64,000 nt of DNA from Sipunculus nudus (Eukaryota > Annelida > Sipuncula > Golfingiida > Sipunculidae), in assembly GCA_026874595.1 (NCBI GenBank), contig CM049316.1, positions 63,965,176 to 64,029,175 on the forward strand. The letters are read 5' to 3'. This document shows positions 12,609 through 40,084 of the stretch, in pieces. How positions within the stretch are numbered: the first letter of the stretch is position 1; the number at the start of each line of letters is the position of its first letter. The notes under the pieces were generated by a model. That model was not told the origin of the DNA and ran no database searches. It saw only the letters and a program-made list of their open reading frames with translations. The translations under genes were made by a program, and so were the position numbers.

Positions 12609-13048
12609 ATCCCGTCATGCCTTGAGAAGCTACAGTTTCCGGCATGTCCTCCATCCATTGTTTGTGAACCTTTTTTCAATCCATTCGTTGTTTGTGAAGT
12701 ATCAAGTAGGCACTCCGGACTAAAAGCAGTACTGAGTACTAAACAGACAATTTTTATGGCTTGCAAGTAGTCACCCTGTGGAGAAGACGAAAACCACTTG
12801 ATAAAAAGCTTATTATAACTTGGATGGTAAACTAGGGGTATAGTCGCACAGGGCAGGCGGAGGTCAGAAAGTTATGTTAAAAACGTTCCTTAGCTAATTT
12901 TTTCCCTTATGATTTATGAGTCTTTGTTTGACCTGAGATTTGTGGAAAATTTTTTCATGATTTTTTTAAAATTTAAGTCGATTAAATAAATCGATTGTAA
13001 TACAAGAGTGGATCATACATACGAGTGTGTACAGCTGAGCTATTCAAG
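12609..13048 (+). promoter_or_regulatory. Duplicated 5' module of Galpha exon A
   Basis: The segment from ATCCCGTCATGCC to the ATG aligns in order with 39441-39820 upstream of copy D. Shared blocks include GGCATG...ATCCATTG, ACTAAACA, GGTAAACT, a CACAGGG(C/A)AGGCGGAGGTC block near 12845, and GAGTGGA...CATAC shortly before the ATG. It lacks the GTCC...GGAC palindrome present in the other three modules. A role as 5' UTR plus promoter is inferred from position and conservation only. Confidence 0.4.
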
Positions 13049-13187
13049 ATGGGATGTTTCGATGAAGAAAAAAATTTGGAAGATAAGGCATTACAAGAAC
13101 GCCATAAAGCTATAGAGAAAGAGCTAAAGAAAGAAAAAGGGCAATACAAGAAAGAGTCCAAAATAACACGTCGGCTCCTAATGCTAG
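13049..13187 (+). CDS. Galpha-s-like first coding exon, copy A
   Basis: This segment encodes 46 codons plus one base of a heterotrimeric G protein alpha subunit N-terminus. It begins MGCFDEEKNLEDKAL, continues into a charged alpha-N helix ([16 protein letters not shown]) and ends TRRLLML-G at the start of the GTPase fold. The exon closes with G|GTAAGT at 13187/13188, phase 1, the position where human GNAS exon 1 ends. Gly2 and Cys3, the lipid-modified residues in the Galpha-s family, are present. In the family this helix binds the beta-gamma dimer and the membrane, and the full protein activates adenylyl cyclase. An in-frame ATG lies at 13025, but it would bury the MGC terminus, so 13049 is preferred. 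Among the four copies this one has diverged most in its upstream region. A GAGTCC-rich element begins only 28 bp into the intron. No exon 2 is visible downstream. An isolated duplicated exon is the alternative reading. Confidence 0.88.
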
Positions 13188-13215
13188 GTAAGTTTACGTT
13201 TATGTTTATATATAG

Positions 13216-14793
13216 CAGTGATGTAGTCGAGTCCACACAAAACGTGTCCGAGTGTAAGTTGGAGTCCCAGCTACACGAGCCCAAAGGCTATGAAACGAAA
13301 GGAAAGTCTGAGTCCTTTAAGTTTGATAAAATAGAAATTTACCAAGTGTATTAGAAGCGAATTCCAGACTTGTTGGGGATTGCAAACGGAACAAAATCCG
13401 AGTCCTTTAGGTTTGAGTCCAGGTCTTATACAAATCTCCCTATTAAAAGAAGTTAAAATGGAAATTTGAGACTTGAGTTCTCACTTGAATGTTTAATTAG
13501 GCTACATTTAGCTCCCGATGCATGAGCTTAAGCTTGGTATATGGAGATCTGTTTAATTATCTGTCAGTAGTTTGCATATATAGTTCAAACTAAATAATAA
13601 TAATAAAAATTATATTAATAATAATAACATTAAGTTTTTATAATAATAGAAAGACCATTCTACGATGGTCGGACTCGCAGCACAATTCACACAAACACTA
13701 ATACAAACTTAAAATTTCATGGAACCCTACTCCCTGTGCCTTTCCCTATCCAGCTTTCCTTCTCATCTTTTCTCGCGTGTTTATCCATTGAGACTAACTA
13801 AAGAAAAACATATGATACATATTAATGACCAAAACCTTGCCGAAAGAGATATGTTTTAAGTTGGTGTTAAATAATTTACGATTTTCTAAGTGTATTGGGA
13901 AGCAGAATCAAGACTTTTGGGGTTTTGGAACTTACGGAACGTTCATCGTCTTTTATATTACACTTTGGTACTTTCAGAAGATTTCCGCCAGCCGAACGCA
14001 GCGTACGCAAAGGCCGATATAGGTTATTAATTTTTTAGACAAATATGATGGAAGTGAGCCATCGAAGTGGCGATTAACAAAAAAGGTAATTTTGTATTAT
14101 ATGCATTACTTGAAGGGAAGCCATTGGAGCTGTTTCAGCAGCTGGGTGACATGGTCAGACTTACGCTTCTTATTAATGAGACGCGCAGCATTATTCTGAA
14201 CCGTCTGCAGCCGAGAGACTTGCTCTGCAGGTAACATAGCAAGAACTGAATTACTGTATTCCAGGCGAGATAATTATGTGGCGAAAATGTGCCGACAGCA
14301 CGAATTAGTAGGGAGGAAAAGCCGGATGAAGCTCGAGAAAGGCCTCACGTCATATACTACTGATATAATCATACATGGAAAGATTTTAATCAATCTTTAC
14401 ACCGAGATCATTCACGGAAGTTCCGAAAAGGAACAGTGCTGCCACCAACGCTTATGGACTCACTGTCAATCATCCGCAGACGGGGCCTAGATCCAGCATG
14501 CAGGCATAACTTGTCGGTATCAATTTCAGTTTATTGCTAGTCATGCATCCATGATAGTACATCCACAATACAACCCTGTATGCTAATATTAAGTAAAAAG
14601 CACGTGTAAACCAACATTAGTTTTTTTACTACGGAGATTTGTACTGGACTAGGACTTGGACTCCGGTTCCAAATGACTCAGACCCGGAGATGCTGGAATC
14701 GAAATTCAAGGACTCGGACCTGGCCTTGGACTCGAATGGCTCGATTCGGACTTGCACCCAGACTCGGATGAGGCTTACTCCACTACATCCCTG
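13216..14793. mobile_element. GAGTCC-rich inverted-repeat element in Galpha intron A
   Basis: The left end CAGTGATGTAGTCGAGTCCA and the right end, read in reverse complement as CAGGGATGTAGTGGAGTAAG, form a terminal inverted repeat. Subterminal regions are filled with GAGTCC/GGACTC repeats on both sides. No clear target duplication or transposase is seen. It starts 28 bp after the donor of Galpha exon A. A related copy begins at 53778. Confidence 0.7.
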
Positions 14794-14919
14794 ATCGCGA
14801 TTTATGCTAAACATCTTGAATCCTGACACGACCTTTGTCGTCAGTCGTCCCCTTAAGGGAGGAATATCAAAAAGGGAAGCCGTGTGTTATCCTATCCCAT
14901 AGGTAAGGATCTGAAATGG

Positions 14920-15150
14920 TTTCTCGATTCATTCTGGATATCTCCATTCCAGGCCCGGCTTTTGTCTACAGTTCTCATCTTGAAACGTTTGATCGTTGAT
15001 GATAAACTTCACCTTTTAAATAAATCCACGTCATATATCCCGTCCCTGCTGGCCCTGTTTCTGGCCACGTGCTTCTATAGATCTGAAGTGTTTTGTTTAT
15101 TCTTTACTTCACCTGGTGATCCTGTAACCGCAGTATTTCCGGTTCCTGGA
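14920..15150 (+). repeat. Segmental duplicate of 7640-7882
   Basis: Shared blocks in the same order are CAGTTCTC, TTAAATAAATCCACGTCA, GGCCCTGTTTCTGGCCACGT, GTGCTTCTA, TCTGAAGTGTTTTGTTTAT and TTTCCGGTTCC. The pair marks the left part of a larger unit that was duplicated around the Galpha exons. No gene is seen in either copy. Confidence 0.75.
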
Positions 15151-15635
15151 CTTGACCCTGGTTGGCGGCGAGTGAGAGATTGGTCTGTCTCGTGAAGGAC
15201 TTCAGAAAATGGTCTTTTGTATCATTTCTTGGTCATATCATATATTTCCACCGATTATTTTATAATTTTAGATCAGTTGTTAGCTTGCGTTGCCCCTTTC
15301 CAGTGAATGAATGGTTTGCGTCAATATTATATCTCTGGATGAATGCATTTATGGATAATAATTTTTATGTTGTAGTTCTTTATTACAAAGGGCAACGCAA
15401 TGAAGCGGTAAACTGAATCTTCAATGCAATTTAAAAGGGACCACCCATTAAAATCATGAACTTAAATTAACCGGACTGTAGGAGACCTACTTCCTAAAAC
15501 ATTCACTCTTGCAACAAGCTACCCACGAAACCACCCCTTGTTTCCCTCAAATTCGTTATAATCACATTTCAAGCTATTATTGATGGGTACTATCTTGAGT
15601 CCTCTTAGTAAAAAAAGTTTAAAATATCCCTTTGC

Positions 15636-15950
15636 CTTTTCTGAGTTCAAAGGAGAAAGGATGCCTAGAGCTCACTAATTTAAATAATTTCATTTCCTTC
15701 ATGTAAGTTGTCATGTAAATGAGGGGAGGCATTTGGCATGAGGCATTTATATTAATATTCCTTGTTGTATAATTCAAGAATTCGTAATTAAACGCGGTAA
15801 GCTAATTGATTTTAAAACTAAATATCATTGTCTTTTCTGAGACGCTGCGACTAACAAACCATCTGGAAAATAATCTGGAAACAATTTATCATATATTCCA
15901 AATAAAGAAGGCATGCAATCTATATTATAGTTGACGATGGTCGCACTGGA
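15636..15950 (+). repeat. Segmental duplicate shared with 19503-20300
   Basis: The segment runs from CTTTTCTGAGTTCAAA to GGTCGCACTGGA and includes GAGCTCACTAATTTAAATAA, TTGTATAATT, AATTAAACGCGGT and TTTTCTGAGACGCTGCGACT. It matches 19503-19811 plus 20283-20300. It is also the empty-site version that defines the MITE insertion at 19812-20282. Confidence 0.85.
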
Positions 15951-15984
15951 CCTTTGAAACGGAATTCCTCTGTGGCCACGCCTT

Positions 15985-16385
15985 GCTGGTCCAGCAAACG
16001 TATTCCAAATCTCATTATGTTATTAAATATTATATTTAGATTTTACATAAAAAGAGCCCAATTCCTGGAGGAAAACATTTTTTCTATCTTTTTTTTCTAT
16101 AAAAACATGAGGTTGTGTAATATGTTCAAAAACTATTGGCACATCTTTGAGCACTGTCAACTTGGCAGTGACTTCACACACTGGGAAATCCCCTGTGACT
16201 AAAAATTCTAGATCTCAGTAAAAACACAGTATTTCTGCCACTGTCAGTCCCAAATTATCAGGAGAGAATAAAAACAGCAGGAAGTAACGTTACTAGATCT
16301 TAGTTGTTGATAAAATTCGGTCCATGATGTCACATGCGTAAGAACCGATCAAATCAGGGCAAAGTCTGGGATCTCAATGAAATCC
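15985..16385 (+). repeat. Segmental duplicate of 11275-12240
   Basis: This is the compact copy of the segment described at 11275-12240. Together with 14920-15150 it places exon B in the same duplicated context as exon A. Confidence 0.72.
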
Positions 16386-17477
16386 TTCGTTCACACAAAA
16401 AACGCACATGGAATATGATAACTTAACCTTCATATGTACGTTTATGGACTTGAACTTTGGGGGAAAATGTAATTGTGGCATACGGGGGGGAAGGGTTATT
16501 TTCCTTATTTCTCCATAAATCCAGAGATGTTTCAAATAATTTTCGAAAGTGCTATTACAGCGCCATCTGTCGGTAATCACGATTGTGTATCACGAGAGAA
16601 AACAGTTTTTTTACTGAGAATAAAGGGCCTCGACCCACACAGCGGAGACTCGGACTCACAAGAGTACGACTCTGCTGTTCAGCAATTGTTGGAGTCAAAA
16701 CCGGACCCCCACAATGCACCGGGGCTCCTTAATACACCAGCGGCGTACGTAGGTACAAATGTAATGAAGAGTACAATGAAGTCCGTTCAAGCGTGTTGGT
16801 TAAGATTTTTTTCCCAAGCAAATTACATAAACATTTATGGAAAAAGTAATATTTTATAAGCACGCGTATGTGAAATTAAAACCGAAGGTTTTTTAGTTTG
16901 AATTTTGTCAGAGGATACAAGTGTTCTCGGCCGTCCGACAGAACCTAATCAGAAGAGATTCGTTTTGAGTAAATAAAAAATACCTTGACCAGCATGTGAT
17001 GCTGCTATTTTGTTCCGTAGCTAGCAGTGCAAGAAGAAGACATACAGTTCCAAATGAGGGTTTAAATTCCTTGAAAGTTGAGTTAAGATAACGCAAATTT
17101 CTCATAACAATATATGTGCACCATTGCACCCATCACGTATTTGCTGCATATTTAGTAGCCACAAGTGGGGCTAGCCTGTTGGCCTACCATGCAACCGGTG
17201 ACGGGCATTCAGCATGTTGAGAGACAGGGGCGGACGATAATGGATAATCGGTTGCACATTACCTTGGAAATAAGGTCAAGGTCAAAAATAAATATCAGGT
17301 GCAGTTCTGTGACCAATGCCTAATATTGTGCCCAAAAGGCAGCTTTGAAAATCAGCCATATTTGTTTTCCATCTGCGTAAAATGGTGAACAAATTATTGA
17401 TATAGAAATAAACTCATCATGATCAGCCTCCTATTAGTCGCCCCTTCCCACCATACGGAAGGAGGCTTAATCACTTG
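16386..17477. other. Gene-free stretch
   Basis: No gene was recognised. GCGCCATCTGTCGGTAATCA lies at 16560, a short motif also seen elsewhere in the window (GCGCCATCTGT, 24250). Its meaning is unknown. Confidence 0.45.
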
Positions 17478-17725
17478 AGAGTCATTGGGGATTGAACAGA
17501 CGAGGAATAACATGCTCGGCTCCCTCCGCTGGCGACCCGGGTTCGATCCCCGGCGTGGCTATAAGAATGGTTTGTACAGTGGCCCGTCCAAAACCGATGG
17601 TTTTCTCCGTGTTCTCCGGTCTCCTCCAACTCCAAAGACTACCGAACGCCACCATCTGGGCCATAGAGAGCGCATGGTATTAGTTATAATAATTAGTACA
17701 ATACATGGAAAATAAAAAAAATTTA
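17478..17725 (+). mobile_element. tRNA-derived SINE
   Basis: GGCGACCCGGGTTCGATCCC at about 17530 contains a B box (GGTTCGATCC) like that of a tRNA. It is followed by a body with GATGGTTTTCTCCGTGTTCTC, CGGTCTCCTCC and AGAGCGCATGGTATTAG. No A box or tRNA fold can be recognised, so the head is degenerate and this is not a tRNA gene. Relatives lie at about 25245-25375 and, reversed, at 30600-30790. Confidence 0.75.
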
Positions 17726-18032
17726 TTATTACATAGAGCAAACAACTTCAAAAAGCACCAAGCGTGCATTTAGTAGCATAACTATTTATAGATCTGACTG
17801 TATTTATAGTGAGTCCTTGGCAGTATGAAACTGTGATATACATAGTCGTAAAAACATGATACGCGTGAAAGATAGCGGTTATATAGAATTCACAGTTTGT
17901 TTGTCAACTGTTGTCAGTTGCTAGGGATTATGTATATAGGTACTCTGTGCTTTAGAAAAAAAAACCTGAACGTGCTATAGAAAAAAAATTGCTGAGTAAG
18001 AGGGTCGTTTCACGTGTGGTAAACTCTAATCC

Positions 18033-18044
18033 GTCCCGCGGGAC
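18033..18044. promoter_or_regulatory. Palindrome GTCCCGCGGGAC, module B unit 1
   Basis: This is a perfect 12-bp self-complementary site, repeated at 18190-18201 and 20570-20581, with a decayed form at 39600-39611. Its presence in the modules of copies B, C and D, and its near-constant distance from the ATG (for the proximal sites), suggest a dimeric factor site. That function is inferred. Confidence 0.35.
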
Positions 18045-18189
18045 GTGCCAAAAGTAAAAAGTTCCAGTCGAGTTTTTTGCCCCAGATTTATAATGCCCCC
18101 CCCCCCCCACCCAAAAAAAAACCTGAACGTGCTATAGAAAAAAAGTTGCTTAGTAAGAGGGTCGTTTCATGTGTGGTAAATGCTAATCC

Positions 18190-18201
18190 GTCCCGCGGGA
18201 C
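18190..18201. promoter_or_regulatory. Palindrome GTCCCGCGGGAC, module B unit 2
   Basis: This is the proximal copy in module B, 216 bp before the exon B ATG. It is preceded by GTGTGGTAAATGCTAATCC, shared with the other palindrome-bearing modules. Confidence 0.4.
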
Positions 18202-18405
18202 CTGAGTGCCAAGAGTGAAATGTTCCAGTCGATTTTTTTTTTGCCCCAGATTTATAATGCCCCATGATCCACCCGTGACCGGTAAATACAAGAATTCCAT
18301 AGTTTGAGGTGAGCGATTGTGAACGATCCGCCGTAGGAGAGAGTATGTCGTTCGTCATATTAGACCGGTAGTAACATATTTGGGTGTCCAACAAACCCAT
18401 TAATA

Positions 18406-18535
18406 ATGGGATGTTCCGGTGGTGAGACAACTTTGGAACAAAAGGAAGCCAAGAAACGTCATAAACGTATAGAAAAAGAACTGAAGAGAGATAAAAAGAA
18501 AAACAAAGAACTAGTATATCGGGTCCTCTTGGTCG
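18406..18535 (+). CDS. Galpha-s-like first coding exon, copy B
   Basis: This exon has 43 codons plus one base and is homologous to the N-terminus of Galpha-s. It reads MGCSGGETTLEQKEAKK, then the alpha-N helix RHKRIEKELKRDKKKNKE, then YRVLLV-G, and ends at the phase-1 donor G|GTAAGT (18535/18536). Gly2 and Cys3 are kept. It is three codons shorter than copies A and D. It replaces the canonical HRLLLLG with YRVLLVG, and the helix is unusually lysine-rich. It is a close duplicate of copy C, with about nine base differences over 130 bp, some silent and some replacing; neither copy has a stop or frameshift. That favours recent duplication with the reading frame kept. The upstream module contains a ~156 bp tandem duplication and two GTCCCGCGGGAC palindromes. 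The next exon (GAGESGKST P-loop) is not seen. Confidence 0.86.
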
Positions 18536-18989
18536 GTAAGTTTTCCAGGATTTTTATATTTAGCAACATCTTAATGTACGCCTGATTAATGTGTACAAAT
18601 AACTGAACGATATGTATTTTATTTTAAGATGATCAGACCGAATGCACAGTTCCCTCTTTTTTCCAATATGGCCGACCGAGTTACACGTGCCATATAACGG
18701 TCCACTTCCATACATCCCAAAGCACAAATCTAAGGTTAGTCGCAAAATTTCTAAATATGAGGTCCTAGTACAAAAGCGGAACCCCCCCCCCCCCCCTCCA
18801 TCGACTGTTTTATTCATATCCGATGCTAACCCAACAATTAAATCCAAATCCGATTATACCTATTTTGAGTAAAATTGCTACACACTATCCCTTTGAATAA
18901 TAAATGAACCAACGGATCTAAAATCATATTTATTGCAAACAAGGGCAATGTTGATCTGTGAAACAGATCTTGCATGTCCCCCGCCTGAT

Positions 18990-19490
18990 GTGTGATTTTT
19001 TAGAAAAAAGTTGTGAATACCTGTATGAAATGGGTCAGTATCACACAGCCAGATTACCTCTGCAACCTTGAAAACTGCATGAAGGTCATCCATTTTTTTT
19101 TAACCAAACCTGGCCCTTCATGAGGTTCGTCAATGCTGAAAGTTTACCTCAAATTCTTTCCGAGTTTTTACGGTAACATCATTTTAGCATTAACGCCGCT
19201 GTTACCTTGAAAAATGTGTAAAGGTCATCCACGTTCGAATTTGACCTAGCCCTGGATAAGGTGCATTAATGCTGCAAGCTTGGTGACTGTACCTCAAATT
19301 CTTTTAGAGTTATTGCGTTAACATCATTTTAGCATTATTGCCGCTGGACCTTGAATTGTGTCAAGATCATCCATATTCGAACTTGGCCTAGCACTTGATG
19401 TTGTTCATCAATGCTGTAAGTTTGTTGACTGTATCTCAAATACTTTTCGAGTTATTGCGTTGGCAAATGTTGGACGGACGGACGGCACGA
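18990..19490 (+). repeat. Tandem repeat, period ~140 bp
   Basis: The phrase (A)AGGTCATCCA recurs at about 19083, 19223 and 19365, each time in a unit with CATCATTTTAGCATTA, CCTTGAA and GGTGACTGTACCTCAAATTC. About three diverged units are present, ending in a GGACGGACGGAC stretch. Confidence 0.7.
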
Positions 19491-19502
19491 CGGAAAGACG
19501 AA

Positions 19503-19811
19503 CTTTTCTGAGTTCAAAAGAAAAGGATTTTTAGAGCTCACTAATTTAAATAATTTCTTTTCCTTAATGTAAGTTGTCATGTAATTGAGGGAGGATTTTT
19601 GGCATGAGGCTTTATATATATATATTCCTTGTTGTATAATTTAGGCATTCATAATTAAACGCGGTGAGCTAATTGATTTTAAAATTAAATATCATCGTCT
19701 TTTCTGAGACGCTGCGACTAATTAACCATCTGGGAAAAATAATCAGGAAACAAGTTATAATATATTCTCAATATAAATGGCGTGTTCTCTATATCAATGT
19801 TGACGGTGGTC
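19503..19811 (+). repeat. Segmental duplicate of 15636-15950, split by a MITE
   Basis: This segment is highly similar to 15636-15943 and is cut off at TGACGGTGGTC, where an element has inserted. The match resumes at 20283 (GACGGTGGTCGCACTGGA). Confidence 0.85.
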
Positions 19812-20084
19812 AGGGGCGTCAATTAAGGGGGGATGGGGGGTATATATACCTCCACTTTTTGGCAAGGGGGGGGATTGCCAATGTAATCACCCCCCCCCCC
19901 CCCACTTTTCAGAGAATAATATCATAATATTGCAAATGAAATATATAAATAAATACATTAAAAGACATTGGATCCATTTACTTAAAAAATGTTATATCTT
20001 AACCTTGCTTTGTATCACAAAAAAAAAAAACTTATTTTCTATTACAATTTTATAATTATTTGAAATATGATTAACATTGGTATG

Positions 20085-20138
<54 letters not shown>

Positions 20139-20282
20139 CACATATATGTAAATATATATATATATATATATATAGTTTAATATGTCACTCAGAGACGCTG
20201 AAAAGTCATATGTGTGTGTGTGTATAAAAATATACAAAGTCATCCCCCCCCCCCCCACCCTGGAAGAAAAATTGACGCCACT
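19812..20282. mobile_element. Non-autonomous inverted-repeat element (AGGGGCGTCAATT / AATTGACGCCACT)
   Basis: The ends are inverted repeats (A-G/T-GGCGTCAATT). A 10-11 bp target duplication, (T)GACGGTGGTC, flanks the element at 19801-19811 and 20283-20292. The paralogous site at about 15932-15943 carries only one copy of that target. The interior has poly-G, poly-C, A-tract and long TA runs and no coding capacity. The second copy is at 28812-29258. Confidence 0.85.
20086..20174. repeat. TA microsatellite pair in MITE
   Basis: Two long TA runs separated by CACATATATGTAAA lie in the centre of the element at 19812-20282. Confidence 0.9.
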
Positions 20283-20296
20283 GACGGTGGTCGCAC

Positions 20297-20783
20297 TGGA
20301 CTAAACAACTTTAAAAAATGCACCCAGCATACATTCAGTAGCATGACTGTATATAGATCTGACTATTTGTAGTGAGTCCTTGACAGTATGTAAGTGTACT
20401 TTACATAATCGTATAAACATGATACGCGTGAAAGTTTGTTTGTCAACTGTTGTCAGTTGCTATAGGGATTATATATTTAAGTACACTGTGGAATAGAAAA
20501 ACGCTGCACCTGCTATAGAAAAAAGCTGCTTAGTATACAAATCGTTACTTGTGTGGTACATGCTAATCCGTCCCGCGGGACCGGAGTGCCAAGAGTAAAA
20601 ATGTCACAGTCGATTTTTTTGGCCCAGTTTTATAAAGCCCCATGATCCACCCGTGAACGGCGATTATGAGAATTCCATAGTTTGAGGTGAGCGATTGTGA
20701 ACGATCCGCCGTAGGACAGAGTATGTGGTTCGTCATATTAGACCGGTAGTAACATATGTGGGTGTCCGACAAACCCATTAATA
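20297..20783 (+). promoter_or_regulatory. Duplicated 5' module of Galpha exon C
   Basis: This is the single-unit version of the copy B module. One GTCCCGCGGGAC palindrome lies at 20570-20581, 214 bp before the ATG, preceded by AAATCGTTACTTGTGTGGTA. An AT-rich TATATATTTAA run lies at about 20470. The module begins directly after a MITE insertion (19812-20282), so the element now sits against the putative promoter. Regulatory function is inferred. Confidence 0.45.
20570..20581. promoter_or_regulatory. Palindrome GTCCCGCGGGAC, module C
   Basis: This is a perfect palindrome 214 bp before the exon C ATG, in the same context as at 18190-18201. The spacing is conserved with modules B and D. Confidence 0.4.
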
Positions 20784-20913
20784 ATGGGATGTTTCGGTGG
20801 CGAGACAGCTGTGGAAGAAAAGGAAGCCAAGAAACGTCATAAACGTATAGAGAAAGAACTGAAGCGAGATAAAAAGAAAAACAAAGAACTATTATATCGG
20901 GTCCTCTTGGTAG
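20784..20913 (+). CDS. Galpha-s-like first coding exon, copy C
   Basis: This exon has 43 codons plus one base. It begins MGCFGGETAVEEKEAKK, followed by the helix RHKRIEKELKRDKKKNKE and YRVLLV-G, and ends at a phase-1 G|GTAAGT donor (20913/20914). It is the sister of copy B, 2.4 kb upstream. Replacements are S4F, T9A, L10V, Q12E and V37L, with four further silent changes. The similarity continues through the donor into the intron and upstream for about 480 bp. Met-Gly-Cys and the length are conserved. The role inferred from the family is a beta-gamma and membrane-binding N-terminus of a Galpha-s-class subunit. Whether this exon is spliced to a shared downstream gene body or belongs to a separate paralogue cannot be settled, because no P-loop exon lies between it and copy D. 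Confidence 0.88.
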
Positions 20914-21069
20914 GTAAGTTTGCCAGGATTTTTATATTTAGCCTGATCGATGTCTATAAACAATAGAAGGAGAGTTACTTTATTTTAAGATGATCAGATC
21001 AGTTTCCCCGTATCTGAATATGGCCGACCGAGTTGCACTTGCCATTTCACAGCCCATTTTCACTCATCC

Positions 21070-21725
21070 CATCATAAACAATGGAAGAATAAATTACAGA
21101 CCGGTTTCCTGTGTCATGTAAAATATTACCGAAAAAAAGTTATTCATAAAATAATGTATCAATGCATAAATTACATCTAGTGTAAAAGTGTTCAATAAAT
21201 GATTATGAAAAAGCATTGATCAAGACCATATGTATTAATGCATACAGGAAACCTACTGTAAAAGCTTTCAACTTGGCTTTAGAAACTCTTTTTTTTCCTG
21301 CAAACACTTGTTTAATGTTTCTGACAGATTACATAAGATAAGACATCGATAATAACATACGCTCTTTACACAGCGCTTTACCTATAGGCCTACTACCTAT
21401 ATCGTAGGCGCAAGATTTCCGCTGCCTCGGGAGCGTAATAAAAACAATGAAGGCAATTTTGTGGAATGGTCATATTGACTTATAAGAGTTGATTCATAAT
21501 TATTATATAACTAATACTATAAAAGCCTTCAACTTGGCTTGAGAAACTCCTTCTCTGCAAACAATTGTTAATTGTTTCTGACAGATTACATAAGATAAGA
21601 CATCGATTATAATAATGATGAAGGCAATTTGTGGAATGGTCATATTGACTTATAAGAGGCGTTCGACACGGCAAATTATAGAATTTTATTGTATATACCA
21701 GAAATGTGCATTGTCAGGAAATAGA
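21070..21725. other. Gene-free stretch with direct repeat
   Basis: Two diverged direct copies are seen, at about 21255-21480 and 21520-21660: AAAGC(T)TTCAACTTGGCTT, AGAAACTC, TTTCTGACAGATTACATAAG, GACATCGAT and GGCAATTT.GTGGAATGG.. No gene was recognised. Confidence 0.6.
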
Positions 21726-23160: not shown

Positions 23161-23164
23161 AAAG

Positions 23165-25590: not shown

Positions 25591-27390
25591 GTTGAATTTG
25601 TTAGCGAACCTGTGAGCTTATGCGATGGTGCGGCGTCGTCCGTCGTGCGTCGTATGTCGTGCGTCGTGCGTCGTACGTCGTGCGTCGTCTGTGCGTTAAC
25701 CATAGCTATCTCAAAAACGGCAGGAGCTAGCATCACCAATTTTTTTGCAAATAATCAGTCATCCAAACAACTATATCGGATTTTGTTTATTTTTTTCTAA
25801 CTGCATTTTCTTAGATTTTACAGGGAAAAAGCTAAAAAAGCTTTAAAAATCTTCTTCTCCGAAACTGTCCAGCCAAATTGTCCAATATTTCACAGAAATG
25901 ATCCCTGGAACAATCTTTCTCAAATTTGTTCGAATGGTTCCAGTTCGGAGATTTTTGGCCGAGTTACAGGAGGTTGAACTTTGTTAACTGTGCAAAAAAG
26001 CATATTAAAATTTAAATCTCAGAAACGGCTGGAGCTATCATCACCAAATTTTATGCCAATGATGGTCACATAGGTCATATCTGAAATTGAGGTATTGGTG
26101 GCGCCACCTGCATCGGCCTTTTTTGCACGGGGTCATCAGTGCCTGTATCACACTGAGAGCTACAAAAAACTTCTTCTCTGAAACCATACGGCCAAAATTT
26201 TTAATATCGCACAGGAATGATCCTAGAGTAGTGCTTTCTGAAGTTTGTTCAAATGGTCTCTTTTCAGTGACTTTTGGCCAAGTTATGGGAAGCTGAATTT
26301 AGTCATATGCCATAACAGCCCATTTTAGCTCAGTGGCTACAAAGATCTTATTTTCAAAAACCACTGGGCCAAATTCTTAAATCTCACACGTTAATTATCC
26401 TCAGATGTTGATAATTTAAGTTTGTTCAAATGGTTTTGGTTAAGTGCTTTTTGGCTGAGTAACGGGAAGCTGAACTTAGCCAGTTTGCTGTATCATCCTA
26501 TACATGTGAACTGCTGCGCCCTCACTTTTTGTTGACCTCTGACCTTTCCTCTCTGCCCAGCGTCCATTTGTGCGTCTGTTTCCACACATAAACCCACATA
26601 TCTCGGGAACTGTTTGACCGATCGGGCTAAAAATTTTGCACAAATGAAGCCCTTTGAAATCTGTATAACATACACTAAAATGGTGGCGCCACCTGCAACC
26701 ATTTTTGCACAGCGTCCATCTGTTCATCTGCCTTGGGATAAAATCACTCATATCTCAGCAGTGGTTTGACTTTTCCACCTAAAATTTTGCAGGTTTATAC
26801 ATCCTGGACAGCTTTCTCGATTTTATGAAGGTGGCGCCACCTACATTCACGTTTACTCTGCAGACATCCAAGCTCATATCTAGGGAACCATTTGACCGAT
26901 CGAGCCAAAATTTTGCATGTGTATAGATCTCACATAGCTCTTTATTATAGGCAAAACTGGTGGCGCCACCTGCAACCATTTATGCACAGTGTCCATCTGT
27001 TCATCTGCCTTGGGATAAAATCACTTATTTCTCAGCAGCGGTTTGACTTTTCCACCTGACATTTTGCAGGTTTATACATCCTGGACAGCTTTCTCGATTT
27101 TATGACAGGTGGCACCACCTACAATCACGTTTACTCTGCAGACATCCAAGCTCATATCTCGGGAACCGTTTGACCGATTGGGCCAAAATTTTGCTTGTGT
27201 ATAGATCTCACATAGCTCTTCATCATAGGCAAAACTGGTGGCGCCACCTGCAACCACTCAATCCATGCTCATATGCAACACACCTCACTCTTTTCCCCTT
27301 GCCACTTAATCCATTCCTCACTTCACCCGTCCCACTCTGATTTCTGCGGATACACATAGTCGCTTGTTGACTACCAATATTCTAGTTTCA
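25591..27390 (+). repeat. Palindrome-punctuated composite repeat array A
   Basis: Starts near GTGAGCTTATGCGATGGTGCG and a CGTCGTGCGT-rich stretch. The self-complementary 12-mer GGTGGCGCCACC lies at 26097, 26682, 26830, 26959, 27108 (one mismatch) and 27237. The last five are spaced 148, 129, 149 and 129 bp. The two alternating unit types resemble each other (CATATCT...TTTGAC...AAAATTTTGCA...). It ends near GATACACATAGTCGCTTGTTG and ACTAC...ATTCTAGTTT. An inverted relative lies at 45650-46970. Confidence 0.85.
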
Positions 27391-30790: not shown

Positions 30791-30849
30791 GCGTTTTGCC
30801 AATCGATTGTCCTTTTAATTATACTGAAAGAGACATTGTTTTCAAGTAC

Positions 30850-31910: not shown

Positions 31911-32092
31911 TTCATTTATTCAACAAATGCTTAATATACAAGTTTAACCTCGAAACGACCACTGACGGGAACTCGATACAGTGATCGAGTGTTTTTTAGG
32001 TGGTTGTCTAAGCGAGGTCTTATATAAAGAACAAAAAGATCTAGACCATAAACAAGTGCTTGCAATTTTGAGCTGGTCGTTACGCATTGTTT

Positions 32093-32093
<1 letters not shown>

Positions 32094-32178
<85 letters not shown>

Positions 32179-32190
32179 TTATATATATAT
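32094..32190. repeat. TA microsatellite
   Basis: This is a TA run of about 70 bp followed by imperfect TATATTTATATA. Confidence 0.95.
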
Positions 32191-32659
32191 TCATTTGTTT
32201 ATAATATGTTTTTAACTGGTAAATTTCATTCTGTCAGCCTTCTATATGTATAAAAGTACTCTATCCTTTTACGATGATTATTTTAACTACACATAATTAA
32301 ATGGTAATACACGCACCTGCATGTCAAATGCCATTGATGGCATTTTGGGTTAAGTGTACAAGCCTGAAAGGAGTACTCGAGTCCGGGTAATACTTACCCA
32401 GTTCTTGTATATATGTGTAAATGTATATATGTGTACATGTATATCTATATGCTACTCCAAAGCTATACAGACAGTCTACATTTACAGATCGACTTCAAAA
32501 TCTCTTGTCTTCTTCTTTCTTCTGTCATTCTCTGTTTTTACGAGATCTCAAGTATGGCGGATTTCCAAAAGCCAGCCTTTTTGCACAATATTATTCCTAG
32601 GTAACAGATTTGCAATTGATATTTTTTTTCCTTGAAGTTATTTCCAAGGTGTAAAGCGT

Positions 32660-33800
32660 AATAGAACAAATATAGATTTTTTCTTAGAATATACCGTGAG
32701 TGCTATTGTTTAATCATCACGCCACCTTCATCTACTGATTACGACTCCTACGCCTCTCGCACACGATGAAATTTCCTGGTAATGACTTGACACCATAGCC
32801 TTACAAATCCATTGAGTAGGCGGTATATAGCCCTCAGCCGTCGTTTGCATGCCGTTCTCACGTGTCTTTAGCTTTAAGTTGGTGAAAAGTTAAAATTAAT
32901 ACCGTATGGAGGTAAGATTTTTAGGGTTGATTGGTTCATTACCTTTTTGTCCCCGCCTCCGCGGTTTGTCTGTCCGGCTGTCTGTCTGTCTGTCCGTCCG
33001 GTTTTCGTTTACGTGCGATAACTTTCCTAAATATTATCCGATTTTCTTCAAATTTTGTTTAGTGATTGCTTTCATGCATACCTTGGGTGGGATTGTCTGT
33101 CTGAAAAATTATTATCATCAGCTCCAAAACAAAACCAAAAAAATTCCATTTTGTTCCCCATTCACAACAAAATTGTGACATGTGGAGACATCTTCAGGGG
33201 ACAATGAACACTAAAACAGAGGCACTATGGCACTGCAGTATGGCTAGGGAAGCAATGAATGCTTTATTCAAAATCACGCAACTTCATTAAAGCCGGCTAT
33301 TCACATACTTTTTCTATAGAATTAATGTGATTTCTGGCTTGATGGGAAAGCTCTTAAAACGCCTCTGTGATGGATATGCGGAAGCTGAATGATCACTAGA
33401 TGCAAAACATCTATTGCAAAAGTCTGATAACTCAAACTTGCCCCCAGATGTCCTTGTTGACTGTGTTTGGATTTTTTTTTACCCCTAACATGTTATAAAC
33501 ACGTGGACATAAACAGAATAAACAGCCTGTGTACAGTTGGGTCAGTGTTTTCTGACCTATTTTCCTAAAATTTTCAAGGGATTATCTTTAGTTAATAGAC
33601 GTCAGATATCGGAATAGGCCTCATTAAGATTATCTGCCAAGAAAGGATCAAGACTAAAAGCAGTATTTTTTTTTAAGAAACCATGTCATATGATAAGGTA
33701 ATATGATTCTGAGTATGTTTGCTTTATCTAAATTCAACTCCAGGAGAATCGGCTAGCTACATTTCTTGTATCTGGTTAACCCCTGTCGTTTGACATTAAG
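32660..33800 (+). repeat. Local direct duplication, unit 1
   Basis: Blocks TTCTTAGAATATACCG, CGCCACCTTCATCTA, GATTACGACTCCTACGCCTC, CCTGGTAATGA, GTAGGCGGT and TGCATGCCGTTCTCAC, then GCCTCTGTGATGGAT, ATTATCTTTAGTTAATAGAC, GTCAGATATCGGAATAGG and GTCGTTTGACATTAAGTACA, recur in order at 34336-35022. This copy holds an extra segment (about 32880-33290) with a TGTCTGTCCG-rich stretch. Confidence 0.82.
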
Positions 33801-33811
33801 TACAATTCCAG

Positions 33812-33966
33812 GTTTCCAAGGAGATTTTTTATGGACCTGCCTGGATGTCAAGTTAGAAGATTCAATGTCTGGTGGTTACGATTTGTGCCCTGTGAACGGA
33901 CAGCCAGGCTGCCGAGCGGATGACGGACAAAGAGTGATCGCAATGGTTCAGATGACTTTTCAGTGA
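33812..33966 (+). CDS. Candidate terminal exon, unrecognised
   Basis: Following the acceptor ACAATTCCAG, the phase-1 reading is FQGDFLWTCLDVKLEDSMSG, GYDLCPVNGQPGCRADDGQ, RVIAMVQMTFQ, stop. Codon choice and cysteine spacing look like a real extracellular-type segment, but no family is recognised. It begins with GT completing a Gly codon after a phase-1 donor, the phase used by the Galpha first exons. That may be coincidence. The flanking 33290-33800 is duplicated at 34550-35020, and the duplication stops at the acceptor, so the exon itself is single-copy. Confidence 0.35.
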
Positions 33967-34335
33967 GCTGAGCTAAAAATGGAAGTTGTAGTTCTGGATT
34001 TTTGCCTTTTCTTTCCCGTCACAGACTGAATGATCACTTTTATGTCCATGTGTAAATAAGTGATATTATCAGTCATTCATATCAAGGCTTTACACCACAA
34101 AATTGACTATGGTAGGAGTTTTTAAACAGTCTACTATATTTCTGTGATAATTTTATGAAATATGTCTTGCTTCTTTTAAAGTTCATAAAGATTATTCATA
34201 TTATATAAATTTGATCAAAGAATCAAAGAAAATATGAGAGAGTATTGACTTGTGTTTAGATTTTTTTATCATAATGAAAGAGTGTACACTTAAGTAAACA
34301 TGCAGTACCATAACCTGTTACATGTATAGAACATA
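33967..34335. other. Possible 3' flank of the candidate exon
   Basis: The region is AT-rich, with no repeat or polyadenylation cluster that I can assign with confidence. Confidence 0.4.
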
Positions 34336-35022
34336 TAAAGGCTATTTTCTAAGAATATACCGCGAGGGTTAAGGTTTATTTAGTACGCCACCTTCATCTA
34401 TTGATTACGACTCCTACGCCTCTCGCACCCATTGAATTTTCCTGGTAATGATTTGATACCATAGCGTTACATATCTATTGTGTAGGCGGTGTTTATAGTC
34501 CTTAGCCGTTGTCTGCATGCCGTTCTCACATGTCTTTTGTTTATAAGTGCCTCTGTGGCGGATGTATGCGATTGTTTATGTAAAAACCTGTTGACAAACT
34601 GGACAACCATGTAAACTAAGGTCGCTTGATTTTATGCCGAAGCTGAACGGCCAGTAGTTGCAAAACGTCCATTGCAAAACTCTGATACGTCAAACATGCC
34701 ACCAGATGTATTTGTTGACTGTGTTAAGATTTTTCATCGGCCCCCAACATGTTATAAAAACTTGGATATAAACATTTTATAAAAATGTTCAAGGGATTAT
34801 CTTTAGTTAATAGACGTTAGATATCGGAATAGGCCTCATTAAGATTATCTACCAGGAAAGGAGCAAGATTTAAAGCAGTAATGTTTCCATTAGAAGCCGT
34901 GTCATGTAATAAGGTAATATGATTCTGAACACGTTTGCTTGATCTAAATTCAAATCCTGGAGTATCAGGAAGCTACCTTTGCTTATATCTGGTGTGTCCC
35001 AGTCGTTTGACATTAAGTACAT
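34336..35022 (+). repeat. Local direct duplication, unit 2
   Basis: This is the compact copy of 32660-33800, in direct orientation. It ends at TTTGACATTAAGTACA, the point where unit 1 continues into the acceptor of the exon-like segment at 33812. Confidence 0.82.
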
Positions 35023-35455
35023 GCGATGTTATGTCACTCTGAATCTGAGCGATACATTGTGTATGTTTCAACATATCTAATCCAGAACTGGCTGGCCAAG
35101 GGTGAAACTTTTATCGAACCCCCAAACTGGCACAACGGTAAGGAAGCGAACACCTAGTCAACACCTGGCGAGACTCCTGTCTTTTCATGAGAATTATTTA
35201 ATATCTAATGTATTCTTATCCCTACATTTTCTGTGGCCATTCGGTGCATCTGTATACACAAGTTCAAGAATTGTTCTTATCAGACAGATTGTAAAAGTCA
35301 CATCGTATGATCTATACTAAGATAACAAAATAAGGACATTCAAGGAAAGCTATGCACATAAATCACTATAAGAATATTATACAATGTGTGACTATATAAG
35401 TTTCGGAAAAAAATTACATCCATAAACTAGAAATCTGTATTTTAAGGAATACAAG
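35023..35455. other. Gene-free stretch
   Basis: Nothing was recognised. Confidence 0.4.
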
Positions 35456-35777
35456 CCTCCGCCATGTGGGAGGTTCCTATTGTGGGATGCTCTCACAATC
35501 GTTTTTACAATTACCCATTCGACCCATATTCCTAGGTTCATTCGTGCATAAGATGCTGTACATTCGTGAATAATCCTTGTTAAGATTTCTGAATCCGGAT
35601 CATGTGTTGGATCAACACACAAACATCTAATAAAGTCTTTATAGGTCAATGCCCGAAATGTACCGAAAATTTCATTAGATTCTGTCCATGATTCCGTGAG
35701 TTATGTTGTGAACAAACAGACAAACACACCCAAACACACACACGAATGGACATGAACGCACACCCTCCTGGCGGAGG
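35456..35777. mobile_element. CCTCCGCCA/TGGCGGAGG inverted-repeat element
   Basis: The ends CCTCCGCCATGTGGGAGG and CTCCTGGCGGAGG, and the interior, match the copy at 21726-22117 in the same orientation. The 30 bp before it also match the flank at 56575-56604. Confidence 0.72.
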
Positions 35778-36880
35778 CAAATATCATGAAATACTGTGCA
35801 CGTTACATCCGTTTCACATTTTTCTTGATGACATTTACGGAAATAATGCATTTGCATCTCAGCGCCTTCTAGTATTGGAACATTGGACGTTGAACGATTA
35901 AACATGAAACATTATTTCAGCTTGACGCAATGAAGCCTTATGTATTCTTGTTTGCAATCCACTCAAATTATTAAGAATATACTAAAGAATTATCCAGGTT
36001 AAATGCCTTACTCAATCGTTATGTGTTTCACTAAATGAACACAAGATGGCGCTGATATACAATAGCGGTTTACCGTAATTCATAATAAAGACATATGCTT
36101 AGGTACTCATTATATATAGGTCATTCCTTCAATGGGTGTCCATTGGTCTTTGGTGATAATTATGAAATGTGCATACATTTCTGTCGAAACTGTGACAATG
36201 AATGGTCAGTAATAGGACTCCGGCGATAAAGAATAAACTGTTTTATCCAAATTCATATTTTTTTTTTAACTTTGAGTAATCACTTTGTATTTCTAAAGTA
36301 TACTGATGATGTAGCTAATGATATATATGATACTAAACTGAAGGCAAAAAGAGTCATTTGCTCCTTTGCAAGTGCGGGATAATACAAAAACAAGATGGCG
36401 GTTGTGAGTTCCCACTTGTGTATTTACGAGGGAATTCCATGCTGCTTGTGCCATTTTTTAAGCTGGCTATTTATCTGCTGTATTTGTAGAATCCATGTGA
36501 TTTCTGGCTTACTCTGTGTAATTATTAATGAACTGTCAGTAACTCCTGTTTAGAAAAGTTCTTCTAATATGACCGGATAAATGAGCTTGTTTATCTACAA
36601 GTTGTTAGTAAAGACATTACAGGCGCCCATGCTGAAAAAGAGGAAAACTAGACGACCATAGGTAGAGCGCTTGCCGGAAGTTGATATATAACATACGCAC
36701 GGGGAGACAGGAAGAGAGGGGGACCATGTAAAACAGTAATTTGAATGAGCAATGTTCTGGGAGAAAGGAAACAATAACACGTATGTATTAATGCTGATAT
36801 TGAAAAGTCGCGAACGAACGGACAGACAGACAGTATATATTTCCTGGTTTTATTTTAGCTGTATGCCTTTCCGAAGCATT
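35778..36880. other. Gene-free stretch
   Basis: A partial copy of the TTTCTGGCTT dispersed repeat lies at about 36470-36620 (GTGATTTCTGGCTTACTCTG, AAAAGTTCTT). The rest is unassigned. Confidence 0.5.
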
Positions 36881-36891
36881 GCTAAACAATA

Positions 36892-36942
36892 ACTCTATAA
36901 TGACTCTATAATGGACTCTATAATGGACTCTATAATGACATG
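36892..36942. repeat. Short tandem repeat, ~12-13 bp unit ACTCTATAATGG
   Basis: Four near-perfect units occur in a row. Confidence 0.9.
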
Positions 36943-37059
36943 TCAGATCAAAGAACAAGCGGGCAAGAGAAGTTGACATCAACAGACGAACAGACAGACA
37001 TGCTGACAAAACCTTGATGAAAGGTGACCAGACGTCATAATAGGGAATTGTTATGAACA

Positions 37060-38215
37060 AAATAATATTTTAAGGTTTTTCGATGACCTTGACGTTTGAC
37101 CTGTCATAATTAAAAACGAAAGGCTTATTGAAGTTTTATTTTCTATCAACTGTATAATTTTTAAAGCGATTGGCCGCATATTTTGGAATATCTTGAATTT
37201 CCCCATAAAATGCGTAACCATGGTAACAGCAGATTGATGCAGCGAAGGAAGGCCATGGAATGGCGATTAAAATGAATAAGTTTATGCAGCTAAGATAAAT
37301 TTTGATGAAGATATGAAGAAAAAACGATTTTGTGGTTTCTTTTGACCTCCTCTAAAAGACATCAGACTTTATGAAATTCATGTATTCTATCAACACTAAA
37401 ACAATTAGAGGGACTGCTCAAAAAATCTAGCATGTGGAATGCCATATGTCATACGAAACAAGAAACAGGAAGGCGAATTTGATGACATCTGACAAACAGA
37501 CGAAAATACTGACACACTGCCACATCTGAGATAACAAATGTCTAGATATTCTTATGACGATGGTATAGAGGAACAAAATGAGCTATAGTTTATAAGGATA
37601 GGCCTCTTTTTTAAAGAAGATATGACGAAAATTTTATTTTGAAGTTTTTCGATGACCTTGACCTTGAATTTTAATCTATTTTAAAAAAATCAGTAACAGT
37701 TTCAAGAAATCGTTCTGATATACGATATGTATAAGTTACAAAGTGATTTCTGCAAAATTGCGGCCTGTAGAATGTTATAGTTCATAGGCAAGAACCAGCT
37801 TGCAGGCGAAATTGAGGACAACTGACAAACGGACGGATATTCTGACAAAGTGACACAGAGTGGAACACAAGTAGCCAGATCATTTCTAAAGAAGACAAAG
37901 CGGAGAAAAATGAGCCACAGATTATGAAGAAAAGCTCAATATTGACAAAGTTATGAGGAAAATAAGATTTTGACGTGTTATGATCAACTTAACCCTGAAC
38001 TTTGACCTTTTAAAAAATACACATACAGAAAATACACAAGAAATCGTTCCGATATATGACATGTATAAGTTACCAAGCGATTCTTGCAAAACTGTAGCCT
38101 GTAGAATGTTATACGTCAGAGGCATAAACCAGCAAGCAGGCGATATTGAGGACAACTGACAAACAGACAGACATACTGACAAAGTGACACATCGGATATG
38201 ACAGTTGACTAAACC
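37060..38215 (+). repeat. Tandem repeat, period ~335 bp
   Basis: GCCTGTAGAATGTTATA occurs at about 37763 and 38098, and a weaker form (GTGGAATGCCATAT) at about 37434. Each unit carries GATGACCTTGACCTTGA, GGCGA(A/T)ATTGAGGACAACTG and ACAAACGGACGGA. Three to four diverged units are present. Confidence 0.72.
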
Positions 38216-38592
38216 ATCTCATGGAGAAAGCAAAACATAACCTGAGGTGGTTGGTTGCATACGTGTAGAGGTCACTAGTTATAAAATGCAAGGACTTCGG
38301 GCCGATTTGCCGACAGATGGTCTAGCTTAATATGTTTGGATTATTTTGACCTCCACGTGTAATGAACACGCGGATATGATCATAACGAACAGCCTGTGTG
38401 CAATGAATCGGCGTTTTCTGGCCCATTTTAAAAAGGTTCAAGGTTTTATCATCGGTTAATAGACGTCAGATATCGGAATAGAACCCTGTAAGCATGACTC
38501 GGTCGATTTACTTCAATCTGTGCATTATGACAGTGATATATCAGGATATGACGCGAATCTCATTTTCTTATATCTATGTTTGCTTATGTTTG

Positions 38593-38880
38593 CCTCCGCC
38601 ATGAGGTTATGCGTTCATCCCCGCTCGTCTATGTGTTTTTTCACAACATAAACTAACGCAATCATGAACGGAATGGAATTTTCAAGGCATTTCGGGAATT
38701 GGCAAATGAAGGATCGATTACATTTTGGTGTCGATTTGGCGCATTATCCGGATCTGGGAATATTCACATATGTATAGACACATGCACGAATGAACTTAGG
38801 AATATGGACCGAATAAGTGAATGCAAACAATGTTTTGGGAACATCCAATAATAGGGACCCAAAATGGCGAAGGCTTGCAC
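38593..38880. mobile_element. CCTCCGCC element in opposite orientation, decayed
   Basis: This copy starts CCTCCGCCATGAGG and then reads the family interior in reverse complement (CATGAACGGAATGGAAT, GGATCTGGGAATATTCAC, CACGAATGAAC). The far end is eroded. Confidence 0.55.
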
Positions 38881-39440
38881 TCATTACAATGCAGATTTTT
38901 AGTTACTTATTCTTTTATTACATGTCAGATTTTTTTAACGGCTTTGTTCACAAACAAGTCTCCTGTTTTCAATTAAACACGTAAAAATCTATTTTATAAA
39001 AGCAAACTGGAATATATAGGTCGTGCAATCAAAACTATCTATACATGTGCAGTATTTGATTAGAATCTGTCTTGCATATGCTAAGTTTGGACGGACGCAC
39101 GCCATGGAACAATATATATAAAGGAGTGCATAACAGGCATCATTTTTATCATGATGATTATCATCACATATATTCAGTAGAGAGTGCTATCTGCAGGCCA
39201 TATGCCAGTCCGTTGACAAGGTAAAAAAATATTTGCGAATGAAAGTGCGAATGAAAAATATGGTAACTGTGACATAACATTTTGGCATAACATTTAGTTG
39301 CTATAATTCTGGCAGAGATTTTCATTGCCGGTTGATTGGTACAACATATGTAGTTTATGTAGCAATTAAAATCACTCGCAAATCAAAGCGGGGAGCTGTC
39401 ACGTGACACACACAACCTCGTTCCTGATCACAGCTGGGAT
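38881..39440. other. Gene-free stretch before Galpha module D
   Basis: Nothing was recognised. Confidence 0.4.
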
Positions 39441-39820
39441 ATCCCGTCATGCCTTTGGAAGCGGCAGGTAAGTCCTAGCAGCTTCTGGCATGCCATCTAT
39501 CCATTGATTGTCAACTGTCAGTTGCTAAGTACGCGCTCCGGGGCTGGATGAAACACTGGATACTAAACAAATCGTTACTGGGCTGGTAAACTCTAGTCGG
39601 TCCCGGAGGACCTCACACAGGGAAGGCGGAGGTCCGAGTGTCCAGTGTTTTGATGCTCTAGGGGAACTTTTTTTGCCCCAGAATTTAGGAAAACCCAATG
39701 TTCGGCCTGTGAGCGGTGACTACGAGATATTCGTAGATTAGAGTGACCGTTTGTATACAACTCGCCCGTGCGTAGCAGAGTGGAATATACATACGTGTGT
39801 GTCCAACCAACCGGTCCACG
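39441..39820 (+). promoter_or_regulatory. Duplicated 5' module of Galpha exon D
   Basis: The segment begins ATCCCGTCATGCC like module A and contains TTGTCAACTGTCAGTTGCTA as in modules B and C, so it links the two subtypes. A decayed form of the palindrome, GTCCCGGAGGAC, lies at 39600-39611, 221 bp before the ATG. Its upstream context (AAATCGTTACTG.GCTGGTAAACTCTA) is the same as in B and C. The module probably includes the core promoter and 5' UTR of the most canonical copy. Function is inferred. Confidence 0.45.
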
Positions 39821-39959
39821 ATGGGATGTTTCGGTGGCGGAGAAGGGGGCGGGACAAACGTGGAAGATAAGGCATCGAAGGAGCGCCATAAAGCAATAGA
39901 GAAAGAACTAGAGAAAGATAAGCAAAAATACAAGGCCACACATCGGCTCCTCTTGTTAG
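39821..39959 (+). CDS. Galpha-s first coding exon, copy D (most canonical)
   Basis: This exon has 46 codons plus one base. It starts [18 protein letters not shown], continues [17 protein letters not shown], and ends ATHRLLLL-G. The last stretch matches the vertebrate Galpha-s sequence ([10 protein letters not shown]) almost exactly, so this copy is the best match to the ancestral gene. The donor is G|GTAAGT at 39959/39960, phase 1. Gly2 and Cys3 are intact. A glycine-rich run at residues 5-11 distinguishes it from the other copies. In the family this exon supplies the alpha-N helix and first beta strand, and the next exon supplies the GAGESGKST phosphate-binding loop. That exon was looked for to position 64000 and not found, so intron 1 would be longer than 24 kb. 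The upstream region matches copy A over several hundred bp. Confidence 0.93.
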
Positions 39960-40084
39960 GTAAGTTTGCTTGGATGTTTATATTTAGCCCCCTGTACACT
40001 GCAAGGTGTCGCTTCCCGGCCCGGTTTTTTAGCATGCTACAAATTATGACCGCTAGCAAGATCTGGTCTGGCTTAGCCTGAACA

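What the first reader, a model, noticed from the sequence alone, without database searches (positions are those of the whole stretch)
12609..39990. Four tandem Galpha-s-like first exons, all intact and co-oriented
Exons at 13049, 18406, 20784 and 39821 each encode Met-Gly-Cys, an alpha-N helix and the LLLLG-type strand, and each ends at an identical phase-1 G|GTAAGT donor. None has a stop or frameshift. Tandem multiplication of only the lipid-modified, beta-gamma-binding N-terminus would diversify membrane targeting or partner choice while keeping the same GTPase core. The sequences and junctions are seen directly; Galpha-s membership is established family knowledge; the functional idea is inference.
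Basis: partly seen in the sequence, partly recalled or inferred. Interest (0 to 1): 0.88.

Follow-up and report, generated by a model that had tools for sequence, protein, structure and literature searches.

The report
Five alternative Gs-alpha first exons
An animal gene for the signalling protein Gs-alpha appears to carry four extra, intact, ready-to-splice versions of its first exon, so one gene could make several versions of the part that touches the membrane and the receptor; whether they are used has not been shown.

Summary
The four exons are real and placed as described (13049-13187, 18406-18535, 20784-20913, 39821-39959; +): Met-Gly-Cys start, open, phase-1 G|GTAAGT donor. The window hides the key fact: the canonical Gs-alpha exon 1 ("E", 68% identical to human) is a fifth copy 19 kb past its end, 115 bp before exon 2 of the only Gs-alpha body found. 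So the four are extra first exons, 43-70 kb from the shared exon 2. A profile scan of 264 kb found just these five, all intact, no decayed relic. A-D share 5' flank, exon and 29 nt of intron; genome searches met this unit only here. Neutral drift rarely leaves all four open (62 of 20,000 simulations), but codon-based evidence for selection is marginal (p 0.03-0.19). Best reading: a variable-first-exon cluster making Gs-alpha isoforms that differ at the N-terminal tip and receptor-facing hinge, as in vertebrate GNAS/XL-alpha-s and UGT1. No expression or cross-species data were available.

The parts
13049..13187 (+). Alternative first coding exon A (MGCFDEEK...ITRRLLML|G), hinge 4 aa longer than in the canonical exon
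18406..18535 (+). Alternative first coding exon B (MGCSGGET...LVYRVLLV|G)
20784..20913 (+). Alternative first coding exon C (MGCFGGET...LLYRVLLV|G), close duplicate of B
39821..39959 (+). Alternative first coding exon D ([16 protein letters not shown]...ATHRLLLL|G), the most canonical-like of the four
13005..13048 (+). 5' flank of A alignable with D and, more weakly, B and C (likely 5' UTR / core promoter)
18236..18405 (+). 5' flank of B alignable with C and in two stretches with D (likely promoter / 5' UTR)
20620..20783 (+). 5' flank of C, corresponding to that of B
39668..39820 (+). 5' flank of D with stretches alignable to B (39668-39754) and, in the last 30-45 nt, to A, B and C
13188..13216 (+). 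29-nt post-donor intron block of A, shared by the four copies
18536..18564 (+). 29-nt post-donor intron block of B
20914..20942 (+). 29-nt post-donor intron block of C
39960..39988 (+). 29-nt post-donor intron block of D

Best explanation
This is the 5' part of a single Gs-alpha gene with a variable-first-exon cluster: four extra first exons (A-D) upstream of the canonical exon 1 (E), all in phase with one shared exon 2. SHOWN: five intact, co-oriented, phase-1 first exons, one downstream body, and for A-D a duplicated unit of 5' flank + exon + 29 nt of intron. INFERRED: each of A-D has its own promoter; its donor splices over 43-70 kb to the exon 2 acceptor; E, which as a first exon needs no acceptor, is removed with the intron. 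The products would be Gs-alpha isoforms with the same GTPase core, effector face and C-terminal receptor helix, all with Cys3 (palmitoylated in Gs-alpha) and with the helix residues I recall as G-beta-gamma contacts (Ile26, Glu27, Leu30, Asp/Glu33, Lys34, human numbering). They would differ at the N-terminal tip, in net charge (B +7, C +6, E +4) and at the alphaN-beta1 hinge that meets receptor intracellular loop 2 (D keeps THR; A has four extra residues and TRR; B and C have one extra residue and YR in place of HR). Most likely role: cell-type-specific Gs isoforms with altered receptor coupling and membrane retention.
For: Exons and donors; start context and upstream stops. Canonical exon E next to exon 2, and the body on the same strand to C11:64137275. 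Eight of the 37 Pfam G-alpha matches were fetched and compared with human Gs: the one in this gene is 83% identical, the other seven rows (two of them overlapping stretches of one gene) 32-67% over their segments. No decayed copy: five profile hits at iE <= 1.5e-21, next distinct hit iE 25, six frames of 264 kb. The unit was met only in this locus by two genome searches (each also missed known copies). B against C: 13 of 234 differences in 105 nt of 5' flank + 129 nt of exon, 35 of 160 in the intron, gap columns set aside, p 2.6e-6. Among A, B/C and D the intron shows no ungapped similarity after +29 while the exon stays alignable. Neutral simulation: all four open in 62 of 20,000 runs, open with ATG and GT in 0. 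Precedent: XL-alpha-s uses an upstream promoter and a first exon spliced to exon 2 (PMC9294334, PMC2671723; passages). Loop 2 contacts with the alphaN-beta1 region, H41 included (PMC10901899, PMC7338445; passages).
Against: No transcript, promoter or protein evidence. Codon models give only marginal support for purifying selection among A-D: p 0.029 (MG) and 0.075 (MGK) with omega alone fixed at 1; with kappa fixed too, about 0.19 (MGK) and 0.03 (GY), by hand. A against C has dN/dS about 0.8. The significant result with E included may be carried by E. No cross-species test was possible (no relatives held). B/C core against the next 5' flank differs only weakly (13 of 234 against 13 of 97, p 0.023). 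A-C are weak matches to known Gs on their own.
Confidence: 0.72

Rival explanations
1. Silent relics: partial tandem duplications of the Gs-alpha 5' flank and exon 1 that happen still to be open but are not used, or are used at noise level.
For: Only exon 1 was copied; codon-model support is marginal; A and B/C diverge quickly in protein (47% identity); no expression data.
Against: Five of five copies intact and none decayed in 264 kb; the donor phase is kept in all although lengths differ; neutral simulations rarely keep all open; the exon outlives its intron flank.
Confidence: 0.17
2. Only some copies are functional (for example D and one of B/C), the others being young or decaying duplicates; the diversity is two or three N-termini, not five.
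For: B and C encode 88% identical peptides; D is by far the most Gs-like.
Against: A, the most altered at the hinge, is as intact as D and keeps start context, donor and the 29-nt block.
Confidence: 0.08
3. Remnants of whole-gene tandem duplicates whose downstream exons were lost, so that A-D once headed separate Gs-alpha genes.
For: Tandem co-oriented copies are what whole-gene duplication leaves.
Against: tblastn with human Gs-alpha (rows above 22 bits) found no Gs exon between A and E other than the first exons, and a search for exon 2 and P-loops in the window found none; the B-C unit is about 1 kb long, 2.4 kb apart.
Confidence: 0.02
4. A-D are first exons of short independent transcripts, or splice to exons other than Gs-alpha exon 2.
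For: The Gs exon 2 acceptor is 43-70 kb away; splicing was not observed.
Against: Phase and the split Gly codon match exon 2; the peptides resemble the start of a G-alpha.
Confidence: 0.01

Closest known systems
Vertebrate GNAS complex locus (Gs-alpha exon 1, XL, A/B and NESP55 first exons)
   Same: Several promoters and first exons spliced to a common exon 2 of Gs-alpha; the end of the XL exon resembles exon 1 (PMC5896119, PMC2671723, PMC9294334; passages only).
   Different: Here four extra exons of canonical length, related by tandem duplication, each beginning MGC, with no long extra domain; imprinting not testable. Lokits et al. write that the XL exon appears absent in non-vertebrate deuterostomes, but that they could not confirm presence or absence before the vertebrate genome duplications.
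Variable-first-exon clusters: UGT1, GCNT2, clustered protocadherins
   Same: Tandem array of first exons joined to one constant set (abstract of PMC1885805); for UGT1 each preceded by its own promoter (abstract start of PMC3325998 in the listing).
   Different: There the variable exon is a large ligand-binding or adhesion part of an enzyme or receptor (protocadherin part recalled); here it is a 43-46 aa N-terminal segment of a G protein. Promoter activity is not shown here.
Local exon duplications in other G-alpha genes (amphioxus preGNAI, preGNAQ, last two exons of preGNAS; GNAQ/GNA11 exon 4; GNAO exons 7-8)
   Same: Duplicated exons of a G-alpha gene give alternative protein segments at partner interfaces (PMC5896119; passages).
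   Different: Those passages describe mutually exclusive internal or last exons in two versions; here it is the first exon, five copies, probably chosen by promoter.
Drosophila Go-alpha alternative first exons (recalled, not looked up)
   Same: Two G-alpha N-termini from alternative first exons.
   Different: Another subfamily, two exons; from memory only.

Membership tests
Gs-alpha (GNAS orthologue) gene | Canonical Gs exon 1 followed by exon 2 with P-loop GAGESGKST and a Gs-type body and C-terminus | tested here: met
Gs-alpha (GNAS orthologue) gene | Extra exons A-D individually recognised as Gs-alpha | tested here: inconclusive
   D yes by phmmer (E 1.3e-12); A-C weak (best E 1e-4 to 2e-3); none over the Pfam cut-off; A-C homologous to D
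Variable-first-exon cluster (UGT1/Pcdh type) | Tandem homologous first exons, same phase, one constant exon set downstream | tested here: met
Variable-first-exon cluster (UGT1/Pcdh type) | Own promoter in front of each variable exon | tested here: inconclusive
   5' flanks duplicated with A-D and, for B/C, conserved; promoter activity not testable, promoter scan not run
Variable-first-exon cluster (UGT1/Pcdh type) | Transcripts joining each variable exon to the constant exons | not testable with these tools
   No transcriptome held
GNAS XL-alpha-s type first exon | Long upstream coding domain ahead of the alphaN segment | tested here: not met
   In-frame stops 45-51 nt upstream of the ATG in A-D
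GNAS complex locus | Parental imprinting of the alternative promoters | not testable with these tools
   Needs allele-specific expression or methylation data

The most novel reading that the evidence does not exclude
A Gs-alpha gene of a probably non-vertebrate animal (the organism was not identified) works as a cassette locus: five promoters choose among five N-terminal helices, each tuned in membrane retention and in the hinge that meets receptor loop 2, so that one Gs gene serves different receptor sets or compartments in different cells. It would be a variable-first-exon cluster in a heterotrimeric G protein, arisen independently of the vertebrate XL exon.
Probability: 0.45. Interest if true: 0.78.

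Novelty: new variant of a known kind. Interest (0 to 1): 0.6.

Why it matters
Gs-alpha is among the most constrained signalling proteins (general knowledge). If five N-termini are made from one gene, the tip, charge and alphaN-beta1 hinge become a natural experiment on how much of receptor choice and membrane residence is written in the first 45 residues. That is directly testable by putting each exon on the same Gs body in a standard reporter assay.

Tried and rejected
Dispersed repeat carrying the exon: not supported; searches with the D unit (D, C, A and a short upstream match, B missed) and with the B unit (B and C, A and D missed) found only places in this locus. Both are limited first-look searches, so rarity elsewhere is not proven. 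Further or decayed exon copies: none in 264 kb; genome-wide, D finds these five at E <= 9.4e-5 and two more places at E 2.7 and 7.2. Local exon 2 inside the window: none. Structured RNA: no Rfam match at gathering scores. Pairing partner for the 29-nt intron block: no exact reverse complement of its 12-nt core in 264 kb. Pfam on four other window ORFs: no family. Naming the organism: egg-lysin and molluscan haemocyanin families gave nothing, but neither search had a positive control, so even the phylum is not established. Codon models: marginal; omega was fixed by brace syntax, seen as one free parameter fewer, and fitted omega values were not printed. Papers: 10 answered searches (of these 16, 17, 18, 28, 33, 41, 54 aimed at this question); no listed title or abstract start describes such exons. 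Listings were capped (20 of 52, 20 of 188, 10 of 157, 10 of 32), I read listings, one abstract and passages only, and the library lacks most subscription journals. Structure prediction was not run: spliced isoforms are not contiguous in the DNA. An earlier count said 112 bp for E's intron; the recount is 115.
Full report
WHAT IS THERE. The window is 64 kb of contig C11 of an unnamed 1.43 Gb genome. All have A at -3 and G at +4 and an in-frame stop 45-51 nt upstream, so each reads as a self-contained first coding exon.

WHAT THE WINDOW HIDES. A genome search with peptide D returned seven places at E <= 10: the four, two weak ones elsewhere (E 2.7 and 7.2), and a fifth (E 2e-6) on the same strand at C11:64048373, 19 kb beyond the window. 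This exon E is 68% identical to human Gs-alpha exon 1 and lies 115 bp before exon 2 (counted by hand on the sequence). E is therefore the canonical exon 1, and A-D are extra upstream exons. Their first introns would be 70.3, 64.9, 62.5 and 43.5 kb, against 115 bp for E. Of 37 G-alpha Pfam matches in the genome, 8 were fetched and compared with human Gs: the one in this gene is 83% identical, the other seven rows 32-67% over their segments, two of them overlapping stretches of one gene. The other 29 were not compared one by one, though two of them by place are exons of this gene. tblastn with human Gs over 264 kb (rows above 22 bits looked at) shows one set of body exons.

HOW MANY, AND ARE ANY BROKEN. 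A protein profile of the five, scanned over six frames of 264 kb with stops read as X, gives the five at iE <= 1.5e-21 and nothing else below 25, apart from one row that repeats part of D. A DNA profile of the A-D unit gives the four at E <= 2.9e-53, E at 8.7e-7, and then 2.6. No decayed copy was seen. Both profiles were built from these same exons, so that they match is by construction; the point is the absence of others.

WHAT WAS DUPLICATED. A-D share some 30-45 nt before the ATG, the exon, and 29 nt after the donor; B, C and D also share blocks further upstream. The 29-nt block is 22-28 of 29 identical between copies, the next 29 nt 3-10 of 29 (ungapped; for B-C, whose homology goes on, an indel lowers the second figure). 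Among A, C and D, 16 of 23 positions beyond the donor hexamer are invariant; 0 of 200,000 shuffles reach that, which shows common origin, not selection by itself. E aligns with them only over the exon and a few bases around it. B and C are a close pair 2.4 kb apart in units of about 1 kb. In the codon trees with E, E joins the D branch.

IS IT MAINTAINED. For: B and C differ at 13 of 234 positions in 5' flank plus exon but at 35 of 160 in the intron, gaps set aside (p 2.6e-6; coding alone 9 of 129 against intron p 4.6e-4). For the older splits the intron shows no ungapped similarity beyond +29 while the exon does. A neutral simulation leaves all four open in 62 of 20,000 runs, and open with ATG and GT in 0; I chose a D-like ancestor, branch lengths guided by synonymous distances, base composition and ts/tv, and no indels. 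Against, or weak: core against the next 5' flank is only p 0.023. Pairwise dN/dS (ratios by hand) is 0.31 (B-C), 0.28 (A-D), 0.34 (B-D), 0.40 (C-D), but 0.65 (A-B) and 0.83 (A-C); for pairs with E dS is saturated. The codon likelihood test for A-D gives p 0.029 (MG) or 0.075 (MGK); with kappa fixed too, about 0.19 (MGK) and 0.03 (GY), by hand. Adding E gives p about 1e-5 to 4e-5, which E's long branch may drive. Gene conversion between B and C could also keep their exons alike.

HOW IT WOULD WORK (inference). Transcription starting before one of A-D gives a pre-mRNA whose matching acceptor is exon 2; E has no need of an acceptor and would leave with the intron. Aligned with human Gs, the copies keep Cys3 and the helix residues I recall as G-beta-gamma contacts (Ile26, Glu27, Leu30, Asp/Glu33, Lys34), so heterotrimer formation should survive. 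What differs is the tip, the net charge (A +3, B +7, C +6, D +2, E +4, human +4) and the alphaN-beta1 hinge: D keeps THR as in E and human, A has four extra residues and TRR, B and C one extra residue and YR. Papers place receptor loop 2 on this region, with H41 in the pocket (PMC10901899, PMC7338445; passages). For XL-alpha-s, palmitoylated cysteines and a charged N-terminus are linked to plasma-membrane localisation, and the authors write that Gs-alpha leaves the membrane on activation while XL-alpha-s does not (PMC9294334; passages). By analogy B and C may be the more membrane-retained, and A, B and C the more altered in receptor coupling.

KNOWN OR NEW. The logic is that of UGT1/protocadherin variable first exons (PMC1885805, abstract) and, for this gene, of vertebrate GNAS. 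Lokits et al. (PMC5896119) describe exon duplications in G-alpha genes and the XL exon; in the passages I read, their alternative first exon is the XL exon of GNAS and GNAL, and their species set held two protostomes. No listing of my searches showed a tandem cluster of canonical-length Gs first exons (caps given under Tried and rejected). Hence: new variant of a known kind, function unproven.

Noticed in passing
13188-13216, 18536-18564, 20914-20942, 39960-39988: A 29-nt block right after each donor (GTAAGTTT...TTTATATTTAGC; TATATATAGC in A), ending in an acceptor-like T-rich AG, is shared by A-D and stops sharply; not seen at exon E. Possibly a splicing element; no exact complement of its core in 264 kb.
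   Followed up: partly
17956-18263: 157-bp period, 1.9 copies: part of the 5' flank of exon B is itself duplicated in tandem.
   Followed up: no
26677-27256 and 45881-46870: Two tandem arrays with 277/278-bp units whose consensus starts look like reverse complements of each other (by eye).
   Followed up: no
42716-43018: Tandem array of 42-bp units, 7 copies, 94% matches.
   Followed up: no
19145-19461: 142-bp period, 2.2 copies, between exons B and C.
   Followed up: no
C11:64048503-64048617 (outside the window): The canonical Gs-alpha first intron is only 115 bp in a locus spanning about 159 kb from exon A to the last coding exon.
   Followed up: yes
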